Below, piece by piece: positions 11,425 through 49,024 of a stretch of 64,000 nt of DNA (the first letter of the stretch is position 1; every line of letters begins with the position of its first letter). The notes beneath the pieces were generated by a model. That model did not search any database. It saw only the letters and a list, made by a program, of their open reading frames with translations, and was not told the origin of the DNA. The stretch comes from Actinomycetospora lemnae (lineage in GTDB: Bacteria > Actinomycetota > Actinomycetes > Mycobacteriales > Pseudonocardiaceae): positions 372,001-436,000 of the forward strand of contig NZ_JAQZAO010000006.1 in NCBI RefSeq assembly GCF_028737315.1. Reading direction: 5' to 3'. The position numbers and the translations under genes are program-made.

Positions 11425-12399
11425 ATGCCACGGGTCGCGGCCGTCGACTGCGGGACCAACTCGATCCGCCTGCTGGTGGCCGACGTGACCGTGCGCGAGG
11501 ACGGCTCGGCCTGGCTGCGCGACGTCCACCGCGAGATGCGGATCAACCGCCTCGGGCAGGGCGTGGACGCCACGGGCCGGCTCGCGCCGGAGTCGCTCGC
11601 GCGCACCCGCGAGGCCCTGGGCGCCTACGCCGAGATGCTGCGCCGCCACGGCGTCGCCGTCTCCCCGGAGACCGTGCGCGTCTGCGCCACGTCCGCCACG
11701 CGTGACGCCGCGAACCGCGAGGAGTTCTTCGGCGCGGTGCGCGAGGTCATCGGGGTCGACGCCGACGTCATCACCGGCGACGAGGAGGCGCGCCTGTCGT
11801 TCGCGGGCGCGGTCGCCGACCTCGACCCCGACGAGGGCCCGTTCGTCGTCGCCGACGTCGGCGGGGGCTCCACCGAGCTCGTCACCGGCACCTGGGACGC
11901 GGTCCACGCGGAGGTCACCGCCGCGCGCTCCACCGACGTCGGCTGCGTGCGCCTGACCGAGAAGTTCCTCCACGACGACCCGCCGACCGGCGAGCAGATC
12001 GCCGAGGCCGAGGAGTTCACCCGCGCGACGCTGGCGCCGGCGTTCGCCGAGGTGGCGGTCGACGAGGTCCAGACCTGGGTGGCGGTCGCGGGCACGGCGA
12101 CCACGCTGGCGGCGGTGGCGATGGACCTGCGCACCTACGACCCCGAGCGCATCCACCTCTCGCGGCTCGGTCTCGACGACGTGCGCGCCACCGCCCGCCG
12201 GCTCGAGGCGATGCCGCGCGAGCAGCGGGCCGCGCTCGGGCCCATGCACCCGGGCCGCGTCGACGTCATCGGCGGCGGGTCGCTCGTCATGCGGGTGCTC
12301 GCCGAGGAGCTCGCCGAGCGCACCGACGTCACCGAGCTCGTCGTCTCCGAGCACGACATCCTCGACGGGATCGCGCGGGAGCTGGCCGCGCGGTGGTGA
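11425..12399 (+). CDS. ppx: exopolyphosphatase / pppGpp phosphohydrolase (Ppx/GppA)
   Basis: Member of the ASKHA-fold Ppx/GppA family that releases phosphate from polyphosphate chains or converts pppGpp to ppGpp, linking phosphate storage with the stringent response. The 324-residue protein has the two phosphate-binding loops AVDCGTNSIRLLVADV near the N-terminus and VVADVGGGSTELVTG in the middle, plus VICATSATRDAxN-like VCATSATRDAANREEF. The short form (about 320 residues, no C-terminal HD extension) is typical of actinobacteria. ATG 11425 is preceded by AGGGGGAG; the frame remains open upstream to 11275 but lacks a good start. Confidence 0.92.
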   Translation: MPRVAAVDCGTNSIRLLVADVTVREDGSAWLRDVHREMRINRLGQGVDATGRLAPESLARTREALGAYAEMLRRHGVAVSPETVRVCATSATRDAANREEFFGAVREVIGVDADVITGDEEARLSFAGAVADLDPDEGPFVVADVGGGSTELVTGTWDAVHAEVTAARSTDVGCVRLTEKFLHDDPPTGEQIAEAEEFTRATLAPAFAEVAVDEVQTWVAVAGTATTLAAVAMDLRTYDPERIHLSRLGLDDVRATARRLEAMPREQRAALGPMHPGRVDVIGGGSLVMRVLAEELAERTDVTELVVSEHDILDGIARELAARW

Positions 12400-23936: not shown

Positions 23937-25175
23937 GTGGAGCTCGTCCGTCCCGCCGACGTCGAGGCCGCGCGCGCGGCGCTGGCCGGCGTGGTGCGCG
24001 AGACGCCGGTGACGCCGTCGCGGGCGCTGGAGGGGCTGGTCTCCCACCACGGGTCGAGCTCCGCTGCGCTCCGTCTCCCAGCCGGCCCGGTGCTCCTCAA
24101 GTGCGAGAACCTGCAGCGCACCGGCAGCTTCAAGATCCGGGGTGCCTACCGGCGCATCCAGCGCCTCGACGCCGCCGAGCGGGCCGCCGGCGTCGTCGCC
24201 GCGAGCGCCGGCAACCACGCGCAGGGCGTCGCGCTCGCCGCGCAGCTGCTCGGCACGCGCGCGACCGTGTTCATGCCGGCCGGCGCGCCGCTGCCCAAGG
24301 TCGAGGCCACCCAGGAGTACGGCGCCGACGTCGAGCTCGTCGACTCGCTCGACGACACGTTCGCCGCGGCCGAGGCGTTCGCGGCGCGGACCGGGGCGGT
24401 GCTCATCCACCCCTTCGACCACCCCGACATCGTCGCCGGCCAGGGCACCGTCGGGCTGGAGATCCTCGAGCAGGTCCCGGACGTCGCGACGATCGTCGTC
24501 TGCACCGGCGGGGGCGGCCTGCTCTCCGGCATCGCCGCGGCGTGCGTCCCGGCCGGCGTGCGGGTCGTCGGCGCGCAGGCGGCGGCGCTCGCGGCGTGGC
24601 CGCCGTCGCTCGCCGCCGGGGCGCCGACGGGGGTCGTGGGCGCGACGATCGCCGACGGCATCGCGGTCTCCCGACCTGGCGAGGTGACGTTCGCGCACGT
24701 CCGGGCCCTGGTCGACGAGGTCGTCACCGTGTCCGAGGAGGCGCTGGCGCGCGGCGTCCTGCGCTGCCTCGAGCGCGACAAGCTGCTCGTGGAGCCCGCC
24801 GGCGCCGCGGCGGTCGCGGCCGTCGCCGAGCACCCGGGACGCTGGCCCGCGCCCGTCGTCGCCGTCGTCTCGGGCGGCAACGTCGACCCGATGCTGCTCG
24901 AGGACATCGTGCGCCGCGGCCTCGTGGCCGCCGGACGCTACGCGGCCCTGCGGGTCCGGCTGAGCGACCGCCCGGGCTACCTCGCCGACGTGCTGCGTCG
25001 CGTCGGGCAGGCGGGCGGCAACGTCGTGGACGTCGTGCACCGCCGCCTGTCCGGGGCGGGCACGACGCCGGGCACCGTGGACGTGGCCCTCACGCTCGAG
25101 GCGCGGGGCCACGACCACCGGGCGGCGATCCTGGCCGACCTCGCGGCGGCGGGCTACGAGGTGGCGGCGGAGTAG
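23937..25175 (+). CDS. ilvA: threonine dehydratase (biodegradative-type, with C-terminal ACT-like domain)
   Basis: PLP enzyme deaminating threonine to 2-oxobutyrate, the isoleucine precursor. The 412-residue protein has the PLP lysine in RTGSFKIRGAYRR (Lys66), ASAGNHAQGVALAAQ, the phosphate-binding loop TGGGGLLSGIA and a C-terminal ACT-like domain (about 330-410, RYAALRVRLSDRPGYLADVL). An odd extra segment, SHHGSSSAALRLPAG, sits just before VLLKCENLQRTGSFK and is encoded across an 18-bp repeat that also occurs inside the DNA ligase gene. GTG 23937 is selected because upstream in-frame residues look non-coding. Confidence 0.92.
   Translation: MELVRPADVEAARAALAGVVRETPVTPSRALEGLVSHHGSSSAALRLPAGPVLLKCENLQRTGSFKIRGAYRRIQRLDAAERAAGVVAASAGNHAQGVALAAQLLGTRATVFMPAGAPLPKVEATQEYGADVELVDSLDDTFAAAEAFAARTGAVLIHPFDHPDIVAGQGTVGLEILEQVPDVATIVVCTGGGGLLSGIAAACVPAGVRVVGAQAAALAAWPPSLAAGAPTGVVGATIADGIAVSRPGEVTFAHVRALVDEVVTVSEEALARGVLRCLERDKLLVEPAGAAAVAAVAEHPGRWPAPVVAVVSGGNVDPMLLEDIVRRGLVAAGRYAALRVRLSDRPGYLADVLRRVGQAGGNVVDVVHRRLSGAGTTPGTVDVALTLEARGHDHRAAILADLAAAGYEVAAE
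24057..24074 (+). repeat. 18-bp repeat inside ilvA
   Basis: AGCTCCGCTGCGCTCCGT occurs here and, identically, at 38730-38747 within the ligase gene. In ilvA it encodes SSAALR in an insertion relative to the usual N-terminus of the family. Confidence 0.7.
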
Positions 25176-25191
25176 GTGTCGCGGCCGCGGA

Positions 25192-25686
25192 TCAGGGCGA
25201 GTAGGGCTCGGCCGAGACCAGCGTGACCTCCATCGACCCGCCGTCGGGCAGGTCGTAGCTCACGGTGTCGCCGGCCTTGGCGCCCATGAGGGCGGAGCCG
25301 AGCGGGGAGTTCGGCGAGTAGACCTCGATGGTCCCCGACGAGCCCTCCTCGCGGGAGCCGAGCAGGAAGGTCTCGGTGTCGTCGTCGCCCTCGAAGCGGA
25401 CGGTGAGCACGGTGCCCGGGACGGCGACGCCGCTCTCGGTGGGCGTCTCGCCGACCTTCGCGGTGTGCAGCAGCTCCTGGAGGTGGCGGATGCGCGCCTC
25501 CATGACGCCCTGCTCCTCGCGGGCGGCGTGGTAGCCGCCGTTCTCCTTGAGGTCGCCCTCCTCGCGCGCGGCGTTGATCTTCTGCGCGATCACGGGACGC
25601 TGGGCGACGAGGTCGTCGAGCTCGGCCTTCAGCCGGTCGTGCGCGTCCTGGGTCAGCCAGGTCACCTGCGTCTGCGTCTCGGTCAC
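25192..25686 (-). CDS. greA: transcription elongation factor GreA
   Basis: Binds the RNA polymerase secondary channel and stimulates cleavage of backtracked RNA. 164 residues: an N-terminal antiparallel coiled coil ([20 protein letters not shown], then [20 protein letters not shown] with the acidic tip) and a C-terminal FKBP-like domain ([20 protein letters not shown]). The signature [17 protein letters not shown] is textbook. The GTG at 25686 has GAGGAG upstream. It converges on ilvA and diverges from mca; a strong intrinsic terminator sits in its leader. Confidence 0.95.
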
Positions 25687-25806
25687 GTCGATCAACTCCT
25701 CGGAGGTCCGGTCCCGCGCTGCGCGGGTCGGCGGCCTGCTCTCCTCGCGGGCCCCTTGGCATCGCCCCGGGTGGTGCGGTGCCGGCGGCCCGGGGGCCAC
25801 AGACGG

Positions 25807-25837
25807 AAAAACACGGCCCGCGGCATGCGGGCCGTGT
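25807..25837 (-). terminator. intrinsic terminator in the greA leader
   Basis: Read on the minus strand, an 11-bp perfect stem (positions 25837-25827 with 25821-25811, loop of five) is followed by TTTTT (25811-25807). It lies 121 bp upstream of the greA start codon and downstream of any greA-directed promoter beyond it, so it may attenuate greA or end an upstream antisense transcript. Confidence 0.7.
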
Positions 25838-25959
25838 CGATCCACGGTAACACGAGACGGGCCGTGTGGAACCCGTTCGACGGTGCCGCCGCAGGGGTCG
25901 GCTGGGCGTGAAGGGCCTTGACCACCTGCGCTTTTCCGTGTCAGGGGCCTCTCGGCCAA

Positions 25960-26025
25960 GGTCCACGGCGGGTCCACGGCGGGTCCACCGCGGGTCCACC
26001 GCGGGCCCACCGCGGGCGCACGGCG
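25960..26025. repeat. six tandem 11-bp repeats between greA and mca
   Basis: Units GGTCCACGGCG, GGTCCACGGCG, GGTCCACCGCG, GGTCCACCGCG, GGCCCACCGCG and GGCGCACGGCG follow one another without gaps. The remainder of the 479-bp gap (25687-26165) holds the greA leader hairpin and direct repeats CGGTGAA near 26101 and 26114 before mca; I see no gene in it. Confidence 0.75.
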
Positions 26026-26165
26026 GGGCCCGCGCGGCCCGCGACCGGGGCTGTCGGGGGTGCCCGGGATGATGGAGGGGAGCGGGGGCGTTGTACCCCC
26101 CGGTGAATCGATCGGTGAACCCGTTGGTCAGCAGGACGACGCACGAGGACGGCTCCGGACAGACG

Positions 26166-27077
26166 ATGAGCGCACTTCCCTCCGACCAGCCGCTGCGGCT
26201 GATGACGGTGCACGCCCACCCCGACGACGAGTCCAGCAAGGGCGCCGCCACGTGCGCGCGCTACGTCGCGGACGGCATCGAGGTCATGGTCGTGACGTGC
26301 ACCGGCGGCGAGGCCGGCAGCATCCTCAACCCCGCGATGGACACCCCCGAGGTCCGCGCCGACATGCCCGGCACCCGGTACGCCGAGATGGCCAAGGCCG
26401 CCGCGATCCTCGGCGTGGCGCACCGCTGGCTCGGCTTCGTCGACTCGGGCCTGCCCGAGGGCGACCCGAAGCCCCCGCTGCCGCCGGGCTGCTTCGCGCT
26501 CGAGCCCCTCGAGGTGCCCACCGAGGCGCTCGTGCGGGTCATGCGCGAGTTCCGCCCGCACGTCGTCGTCACCTACGACGAGACGGGCGGCTACCCCCAC
26601 CCCGACCACATCCGCTGCCACGAGGTGTCGATCGCGGCGTGGGAGGCGTGCGGCGACCCGGACCGCTTCCCCGAGGCGGGCGAGCCGTGGCAGCCGCTGA
26701 AGCTCTACTACTCGCACGGCTTCTCGAAGGCGCGCATCCTGGCCTACCACGAGGCGCTGCTGGAGGCGGGCATGGAGTCGCCGTGGGCGGAGTGGCTGGA
26801 GCGGTGGGACGACTCGCGTCCCGACCCGGGCGCGCGGGTCACCACGCGGGTGCGCTGCGCCGAGTACTTCCCCGTGCGTGACGACGCCCTGCGCGCCCAC
26901 GCCACCCAGATCGACCCCAACGGCCGCTGGTTCGCCATGCCGATGGAGATGCAGCAGCGGGTCTGGCCCACCGAGGAGTACGAGCTCGCGCGCTCGCTCG
27001 TCGGTGAGGTGATGGAGACCGAGTCGGCCGAGGACGGCGACCTGTTCGCGGGCATCCGGGAGCGGGTCGACGCATGA
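26166..27077 (+). CDS. mca: mycothiol S-conjugate amidase
   Basis: Zinc amidase that cleaves mycothiol S-conjugates, releasing mercapturic acids during detoxification; this identifies a mycothiol-producing actinobacterium. The 303-residue LmbE-fold protein has the zinc motifs [13 protein letters not shown] near residue 15 and [13 protein letters not shown] in the middle. The length and the segment [16 protein letters not shown], plus the C-terminal [14 protein letters not shown], distinguish Mca from the shorter MshB. ATG 26166 gives the expected N-terminus. It overlaps the following small membrane gene by 4 bp (ATGA), as in the mycobacterial mca locus. Confidence 0.95.
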
Positions 27078-48100: not shown

Positions 48101-49024
48101 TCAGCGGGGGCCGTCGGGCCCGTCGACGCGGCGCGGCACGCGGCGGACGCCCGGGCCGAACTCGTCGTCCGGGTCGTCGGGACGCACCGGGCGGCGCCGG
48201 TCGTCGGCCGGGCGACGCCCCTCGTCCCGCGCGGACCGGGCCTGGATGCGCACCCGCCGGGGCCGGTCGAGGTCGTCCCGGTCACGCGGGTCGCGGTCGC
48301 GCGGGTCGCGGTCCCGCTCGCGCCCCTTCGACGGCCGGTCGCGGTCGCGGTCCCTGGGGGGCCGGTCGCGGTCGCGGTCCTTGGGCGGCCGGTCGCGGGG
48401 GTCGCGGTCCTTGGGCGGCCGGTCGCGGTCGCGGTCCTTGGGCGGCCGGTCGCGGGGGTCGCGATCCTTCGGTGGCCGGTCACGCGGGTCACGGTCCTTG
48501 GGCGGCCGGTCGCGGGGGTCGCGGGCCGGCCGATCGGGGCGCTCCGGGCGGGCGTCGGGGTCGAGCTCGTCGTCCGGGCGCCGATAGGGCTCGAGACGGG
48601 TCCGGATGAAGCCCATCGCCAGGCAGATCGTCGTCGTGACGGCCAGGGTGGGGAAGGCGTTGACCAGCGGCCCGCCGACGGCCAGCAGCGTCGATGCGGT
48701 GCCGCCGGAGCGGGGCAGCGAGCCGGTCGCGGCGACGACCACCGGCACGCCGATCGCCAGCAGCAGCGGCGGCTGCACGAGCGGGACGAACAGCGAGTCA
48801 CGGCGCGCCCAGGCCGTCGCGAGGATGCACCCGGCGGCGAAGCAGGCGGTGAACACGACGCCGAGCTCGCCGGCGGTCAGGAGGTCGACCGCGATCCCGA
48901 CGCCGGTGAGCGCCGCGGCGAGCAGGAGCGACCCCCACCACCGCAGTCCGCGCAGCGACCGGACGACGGAACGCTCGCCGGGCCCGACGGCCCCGGTCCC
49001 GGCGTCCTCCCGTGCGCTGGTCAC
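48101..49024 (-). CDS. DUF6542-type membrane protein with a long RPPKDRD repeat tail
   Basis: 307 residues. Four hydrophobic segments occupy about residues 28-140 (WWGSLLLAAALTGVGIAVDL, LGVVFTACFAAGCILATAWA, PPLLLAIGVPVVVAATGSL, AFPTLAVTTTICLAMGFI), the actinobacterial DUF6542 core of unknown function. The remaining half is an extremely charged, Pro-rich tail of DPRDRPPKDR-type units that is probably disordered and cytosolic. Position beside ispH and before ychF matches Rv1111c. Confidence 0.8.
   Translation of the reverse strand: MTSAREDAGTGAVGPGERSVVRSLRGLRWWGSLLLAAALTGVGIAVDLLTAGELGVVFTACFAAGCILATAWARRDSLFVPLVQPPLLLAIGVPVVVAATGSLPRSGGTASTLLAVGGPLVNAFPTLAVTTTICLAMGFIRTRLEPYRRPDDELDPDARPERPDRPARDPRDRPPKDRDPRDRPPKDRDPRDRPPKDRDRDRPPKDRDPRDRPPKDRDRDRPPRDRDRDRPSKGRERDRDPRDRDPRDRDDLDRPRRVRIQARSARDEGRRPADDRRRPVRPDDPDDEFGPGVRRVPRRVDGPDGPR
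48283..48520 (-). repeat. in-frame minisatellite in the DUF6542 gene
   Basis: About nine units of 27 or 30 bp encode DPRDRPPKDR or DRDRPPKDR variants. Unit lengths are always multiples of three, so the frame survives expansion or contraction. Confidence 0.7.

What the first reader, a model, noticed from the sequence alone, without database searches (positions are those of the whole stretch)
25960..26025. Six perfect-register 11-bp repeats upstream of mca
The unit is GGTCCACSGCG. Eleven base pairs is close to one helical turn, so any bound protein would sit on the same face of the DNA each time. It lies between divergent greA and mca.
Basis: seen in the sequence. Interest (0 to 1): 0.36.

Follow-up and report, generated by a model that had tools for sequence, protein, structure and literature searches.

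The report
Slippage-made 11-bp repeats between promoters
Six side-by-side copies of an 11-letter DNA unit sit between two genes in one bacterium and are missing from the close relatives that could be examined, so they are most likely a recent copying slip, though the length they add fits a whole-helical-turn spacing pattern that the relatives also seem to follow.

Summary
The array is real: six 11-bp units in register at 25960-26025; 0 of 2000 shuffles of the spacer reached its score. Four of six units fit GGTCCACSGCG; the last two diverge.

It lies in the divergent greA/mca spacer, outside both inferred transcripts, 26 bp before a conserved mca promoter-like block. It is absent from 16 of 16 other genus loci with an mca orthologue, including a sister with 98% identical Mca. 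Two exact tandem units occur nowhere else in its genome, but a 436-kb sample holds nine other non-coding array places. Best explanation: lineage-specific replication slippage, no dedicated binding function.

One result keeps the helical-turn idea alive. The distance from a conserved ACCTGC element to the mca promoter takes 7 lengths in 17 genomes (52-128 bp), all 7-9 modulo 11 (p 0.0006 post hoc; 0.008 with near-equal lengths merged). Thirteen block-to-block spacers elsewhere gave p of 0.29 or more. The window spacer is 54 bp (5 x 11 - 1) longer than the sister's.

By-product: a strongly conserved promoter-hairpin-T-run leader before greA.

The parts
25960..26025 (.). Tandem array, six 11-bp units (GGTCCACGGCG x2, GGTCCACCGCG x2, GGCCCACCGCG, GGCGCACGGCG); TRF adds 2 bases to 26027
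   Evidence: absent in 16 of 16 other genus loci with an mca orthologue
25192..25686 (-). greA (GreA_GreB_N + GreA_GreB domains), divergent neighbour; GTG start at 25686 judged from the sequence
26052..26073 (+). Conserved mca promoter-like block TGTCGGGGG-N7-GATGAT; TGTCGG and GATGATGG start 16 nt apart in 17 of 17 genus loci; in one clade (7 loci) a GTG follows a few nt behind GATGATGG (leaderless-like)
   Evidence: promoter function inferred; the consensus scan flagged no sigma-70-type promoter
25924..25929 (.). ACCTGC element, present in 17 of 17 genus loci; wider block AAGGGCCTTGACCACCTGCGC 25911-25931, in L019/L020 a GCGCAGG-N10-CCTGCGC inverted repeat by eye; operator-like by inference
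25844..25854 (-). greA extended -10-like element CGTGTTACCGT (CGTGnTAnnnT); promoter function inferred
25807..25837 (-). greA leader hairpin (11-bp stem, arms 25811-25821 / 25827-25837) followed by a T run; intrinsic-terminator-like
   Evidence: z -5.09 for 25808-25850; not flagged by the stricter rule

Best explanation
The array is a young, lineage-specific tandem expansion made by replication slippage of an 11-bp GC-rich unit in a fast-evolving spacer between two divergent genes. It has no dedicated function as a row of protein sites. Shown: the array, its absence in the relatives examined, and the +54 bp against the sister. Inferred: slippage as the mutational step; the promoters, and so the position outside both transcripts; neutrality, or tolerance because 11-bp steps leave the rotational setting of the flanking conserved elements almost unchanged.
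For: Absent in 16 of 16 other genus loci with an mca orthologue, including the sister; the remaining genus genome, G010, 59% complete, gave only a distant hit. Element-to-promoter distance 128 bp here against 74 bp in the sister, a difference of 54 = 5 x 11 - 1. Copies 1 and 2 are identical, so are 3 and 4, and copies 5 and 6 have diverged, as expected of slippage with edge decay. Two exact units are unique in the own genome, and the one GTDB-contig hit is in an unrelated Deltaproteobacterium MAG; the own record may be left out there. A 436-kb sample of the same genome has 10 non-coding array places (13 TRF rows, this one included) with score 70 or more, periods 9-33, on a crude gene map. No strand-specific structure.
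Against: No second strain of the species was available, so copy-number instability is not shown. The sister's matching stretch shows only a weak proto-unit by eye (about 6 of 11). The array keeps perfect register without indels. Only 3 non-coding arrays of the sample score 90 or more, this one among them, so it is at the upper end. The modulo-11 spacing across the genus suggests that spacer length may not be wholly neutral.
Confidence: 0.78

Rival explanations
1. Phase-keeping spacer: a regulator at the ACCTGC element, or the two divergent promoters themselves, must face the mca promoter with a fixed rotational setting, so only indels of whole turns (about 11 bp in supercoiled DNA) survive. 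The array is one lineage's way of lengthening the spacer by five turns. This does not exclude slippage as its origin.
For: ACCTGC-to-TGTCGG distances in 17 of 17 loci are 52, 73, 74, 108, 118, 119 or 128, all 7-9 mod 11. R(11) = 0.909, uniform-null p = 0.0006; 0.0012 without the window lineage; 0.0076 with near-equal lengths merged, 0.0114 merged and without the window lineage. Six of six length changes that I read by hand from the tree (1-bp changes left out; one of the six is in the hairpin-to-ACCTGC stretch) lie within 1 bp of 11n (p 0.0004). ACCTGC to the greA hairpin is 117-118 or 128, i.e. about +11. Thirteen block-to-block spacers from other intergenic regions all have p of 0.29 or more. 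The 7 expanded and 9 unexpanded spacers of the other loci show no lag-11 self-similarity (16 of 16 p >= 0.198), so the pattern there is not made of 11-bp repeats. [quoted passage not shown]
Against: Post hoc, from 5-7 distinct lengths in one genus. If any period 6-16 is allowed p is 0.014. At 10.5 bp/turn the fit is poor (R 0.62). Only 3 of 6 inferred changes are exact multiples of 11 (p 0.012). The whole greA-mca gene-to-gene gap shows only R 0.52, exceeded by 3 of 19 other gaps (0.54, 0.58, 0.74). No binding protein is known.
Confidence: 0.3
2. Array of binding sites for a winged-helix regulator (OmpR/PhoB or SARP type) that recognises 11-bp direct repeats, activating mca from about -55 to -120 of the inferred start.
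For: 11-nt direct repeat units with a GTTCACC heptamer are the PhoP PHO-box format in Streptomyces (PMC6283541, passages). Units 3-4 read GTCCACC-GCGG, 6 of 7 matches. A PHO-box-like GTTCACCTCGCGTTCATA lies upstream of pstS in this genome. The PHO-like pattern is commoner in the genome than its backward control (67 against 2), for whatever reason.
Against: The array match (2 mismatches) is one of those 67; I did not check how many lie in genes. It is missing in 16 of 16 genus relatives. Units 1, 2, 5 and 6 fit worse.
Confidence: 0.08
3. The repeats act in RNA, as a leader structure or small RNA of either strand.
For: Inverted matches between array and flanks exist.
Against: The array lies upstream of both inferred promoters. 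Folding energies are ordinary on both strands with DNA parameters (z -0.25, -0.31). No Rfam match in 25600-26300 at E up to 1.
Confidence: 0.03

Closest known systems
Lineage-specific intergenic tandem repeats (minisatellite / VNTR-like) of GC-rich bacteria (recalled class)
   Same: Short GC-rich unit, few copies, copies identical in pairs and diverged at one edge, absent from close relatives, other arrays in the same genome
   Different: Copy-number variation among strains not testable here; unit length equals about one helical turn and the net length change fits a genus-wide modulo-11 pattern
PhoP PHO boxes (11-nt direct repeat units) of Streptomyces (PMC6283541, passages)
   Same: 11-nt direct repeats; 6 of 7 heptamer matches in two units
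   Different: One of 67 matches with up to 2 mismatches in the genome; not conserved; six units, where that paper's example has two boxes of two units
Phase-dependent promoter/operator pairs, e.g. lac repressor looping
   Same: Spacing preference with about 11 bp period in vivo (PMC8501960, passages)
   Different: Here only comparative spacing data; no protein, loop or expression evidence

Membership tests
Slippage-type tandem repeat (minisatellite) | Head-to-tail copies beyond chance | tested here: met
   TRF score 94; 0 of 2000 shuffles
Slippage-type tandem repeat (minisatellite) | Not conserved between related species | tested here: met
   absent in 16 of 16 other orthologous spacers
Slippage-type tandem repeat (minisatellite) | Copy number varies between strains | not testable with these tools
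   the genome collections that I searched hold one genome per species
PhoP PHO box | 11-nt units with conserved GTTCACC heptamer | tested here: inconclusive
   4 to 6 of 7 matches per unit by eye; the best pair has 2 mismatches, as have 58 of the 67 matches in the genome, the other 9 having 1
PhoP PHO box | Site kept at orthologous promoters | tested here: not met
PhoP PHO box | Binding by PhoP | not testable with these tools
   needs a binding assay
Phase-keeping regulatory spacer | Length between conserved sites varies only by whole turns | tested here: inconclusive
   17 of 17 lengths 7-9 mod 11, p 0.0006 to 0.014 by treatment, post hoc
Phase-keeping regulatory spacer | Half-turn insertions impair regulation | not testable with these tools
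   needs a reporter experiment

The most novel reading that the evidence does not exclude
The divergent greA/mca control region of this genus is a natural helical-phase experiment: conserved elements at the two promoters hold a fixed rotational relation while the DNA between them is replaced and lengthened by 2 to 7 whole turns in different species, with an effective 11.0 bp/turn, and slippage of a one-turn (11-bp) unit is one route by which the spacer can grow without breaking phase.
Probability: 0.27. Interest if true: 0.55.

Novelty: new member of a known kind. Interest (0 to 1): 0.27.

Why it matters
Taken alone, the array is an ordinary lineage-specific repeat. If the modulo-11 spacing holds in more species it would be comparative evidence that divergent bacterial promoters are coupled through helical phase, with an effective 11 bp per turn read from evolution rather than from designed constructs. 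It would also explain why one-turn repeats can expand there.

Tried and rejected
Coding reading rejected: 11 bp per unit cycles the frame, and the open frames crossing the array look like unsupported extensions. RNA-element reading rejected. PHO-box reading kept only as a weak rival. RecA-NDp/PafBC reading of the mca promoter block not established: no passage read gave the letter consensus, and my pattern was shaped on this very site, so its rank there proves nothing. Alternative that 11-bp repeats cause the modulo-11 lengths everywhere: no lag-11 signal in the other 16 spacers. Unit elsewhere: 16 of 61 genomes including the own have matches with up to 2 mismatches, outside the own genome only isolated ones in the listing. 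The consensus scan found no sigma-70-type promoter in 25100-26300 and one terminator-like site, inside greA; it flagged neither the promoter-like blocks nor the leader hairpin that I describe.

Rows dropped before counts: G010 (59% complete, distant hit only) from the 18 genus genomes. In one search only spacers between blocks of 6 or more invariant columns, with at least 9 genomes and at least 3 distinct lengths, were tested (16 in all, 3 of them in the greA-mca region). In one search the pairwise comparison used 10 other spacers; four narrow-range ones were left out, and 1-bp changes were left out of the six tree changes. The tree was midpoint-rooted, with few sites for G014 and G011, and the six changes were read from it by hand. 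For the greA leader I had loci of 30 of the 60 genomes searched; alignment A2 used 26 of these 30 (L077, L080 and L088 left out as near-duplicates, L063 missed by the regex).

Papers: passages only for PMC2965389, PMC6283541, PMC11804915, PMC6789036, PMC8223512, PMC13236596, PMC8501960 and PMC5081198; outline with abstract for PMC6829880. The hits for greA in PMC11678152 and PMC8780764 were only words such as 'great'. PMC2275107 was not held. Search 53, on phasing at divergent promoters, listed nothing that I judged relevant from titles and abstract starts.

Full report
What is there. The stretch 25960-26025 holds six 11-bp units without indels. The first four fit GGTCCACSGCG, the fifth and sixth diverge. 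TRF scores the array 94; in 2000 dinucleotide shuffles of the 476-bp spacer the best array scored 77. The neighbours are greA on the minus strand and a PIG-L-family Mca-like gene on the plus strand. The genome is about 6.06 Mb in 30 contigs, with 75% G+C in the 436 kb read.

How unusual it is in this genome. A crude gene map of 436 kb of the same contig leaves 72 kb non-coding. It holds 13 TRF rows at 10 places (this array included) with score 70 or more, of periods 9 to 33, among them one more 11-bp array at contig position 11614. Some of these may be missed genes. Three non-coding arrays score 90 or more, this one included. Period 11 is not special: 2 of 46 non-coding rows with score 50 or more, one of them this array. 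Two exact tandem units occur only at this array in the own genome and once in the held GTDB contigs, in an unrelated Deltaproteobacterium MAG; the own record may be left out there. With up to 2 mismatches, 16 of 61 genomes including the own show matches, isolated ones outside the own genome.

Conservation. Of 18 genus genomes 17 (own included) gave a strong mca orthologue; the last, 59% complete, gave only a distant hit. In none of the 16 others does the spacer hold the array, not even in the sister with 98% identical Mca. Much of the spacer does not align, but these are kept in 17 of 17: a hairpin with a T run before greA, a TAACACG (CGTGTTA on the greA strand) 41 nt from it, an ACCTGC element, and TGTCGG and GATGATGG before mca, starting 16 nt apart. 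In one clade of seven relatives a GTG lies a few nt behind GATGATGG, which fits a leaderless mca transcript from that block. Promoter status is inferred: the consensus scan flagged none, and a pattern for the block matched 0 of 28 loci from other genera, where by eye a TGTCGG...AACAATGG stretch seems to stand in its place in some. On this inference the array sits between two divergent promoters and in neither transcript.

A gene loss frames the spacer. In 28 of 28 loci from other genera of the family, greA and mca are 689-857 nt apart, against 299 and 478 in the two genus loci of that call. In the one locus that I checked, the gene between them is DUF4307 (PF14155, E 2.9e-35). DUF4307 was found in 0 of 18 genus genomes. 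So the short spacer of this genus probably dates from loss of that gene; I did not check the other 27 loci.

Helical phase. The distance from ACCTGC to TGTCGG is 128 in the window, 74 in the sister, and 52, 73, 74, 108, 118 or 119 elsewhere; all are 7-9 mod 11. Against uniform lengths, R(11) = 0.909 has p = 0.0006 for 7 distinct values, 0.0012 without the window lineage, 0.0076 with near-equal lengths merged, and 0.0114 merged without the window lineage. Allowing any period from 6 to 16, p = 0.014. On a tree of 25 genes I read six length changes by hand, leaving out 1-bp changes; six of six are within 1 bp of 11n (p 0.0004), three of six exact (p 0.012). As an empirical control, 16 spacers between invariant blocks were tested: the greA 5' leader gave p 0.25, TAACACG to ACCTGC 0.0185, ACCTGC to TGTCGG 0.0015, and the 13 from other intergenic regions 0.29 or more. 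Pairwise differences in ten other spacers (nine from other regions and the greA 5' leader) fall within 1 bp of 11n in 90 of 340 cases, as expected by chance, against 15 of 19 here; these pairs are not independent. Against the reading: whole gene-to-gene gaps give only R 0.52 here, exceeded by 3 of 19 other gaps. The idea was tested on the data that suggested it, and the lineages are few. The other 16 spacers carry no lag-11 self-similarity, so the pattern is not simply more 11-bp repeats. Period 11 rather than 10.5 fits reported looping periodicity in vivo (PMC8501960, passages).

Mechanism. Most likely slippage duplicated an 11-bp stretch several times in one recent lineage; copies 1 and 2 are identical, so are 3 and 4, and the right edge has diverged. 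The net +54 bp against the sister is 5 x 11 - 1. Whether this was neutral or tolerated because phase was kept is open; I give phase keeping about 0.3. Binding of a regulator to the repeats themselves is unlikely, since the array is not conserved. Its PHO-box likeness (format from PMC6283541, passages) is one of 67 matches with up to 2 mismatches in the genome; the backward control pattern gave 2, and I did not sort the 67 into genes and spacers. The pstS upstream region carries a PHO-box-like pair.

By-product: the greA leader. Before greA, on its strand, lies CGTGnTAnnnT, then after 5-10 nt a GC hairpin, then a T run, about 71-88 nt from greA in other genera and about 120 in the window. The hairpin plus T run was found in 29 of 30 family loci by one script (L087 has the hairpin with an interrupted T run), and the -10 plus hairpin in 29 of 30 by another (L063, missed by the pattern, has the hairpin). 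In 26 aligned leaders 234 of 234 stem cells pair, but the stem hardly varies, so covariation is weak. No Rfam family matches 25600-26300 at E up to 1. A covariance model found only the own genome among 149 of the phylum, with strict prefilters; no other member of the family appears in that listing, which shows 21 of 149, so the leader may be family-restricted. E. [quoted passage not shown] Listings of searches and the passages that I opened showed none for Actinobacteria; that is only part of the literature.

Verdict. Observation confirmed; repeat-binding interpretation not borne out; helical-turn idea alive in changed form. The array itself is an ordinary lineage-specific tandem repeat.

Noticed in passing
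window 25807-25854, minus strand (and L062-L091): Conserved greA leader across the family: extended -10 (CGTGnTAnnnT), 5-10 nt, GC hairpin GCACGGCCC/GGGCCGTGT, T run, then greA; works-like candidate for a GraL-type attenuator or GreA feedback element, with the hairpin at or near the 5' end of the RNA if the inferred promoter is right. No Rfam match; not flagged by the simple scan.
   Followed up: partly
window 25690-26165; L064-L091: The gene between greA and mca in other genera (DUF4307, confirmed by Pfam in the 1 of 28 loci checked) is absent from 18 of 18 genomes of this genus.
   Followed up: partly
window 25911-25931: Conserved block around ACCTGC, in L019/L020 a GCGCAGG-N10-CCTGCGC inverted repeat by eye: an unassigned operator-like site between divergent promoters.
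   Followed up: partly
window 26052-26073: mca promoter-like block TGTCGGGGG-N7-GATGAT resembles, from memory, the RecA-NDp/PafBC-type promoter; consensus not confirmed from any passage read.
   Followed up: partly
window 48278-48524: Long imperfect tandem array (periods 27/30/57, TRF score up to 311), not examined.
   Followed up: no
L061 1217-1234 (G000:C25:146958-146975): PHO-box-like pair GTTCACCTCGCGTTCATA upstream of pstS.
   Followed up: no
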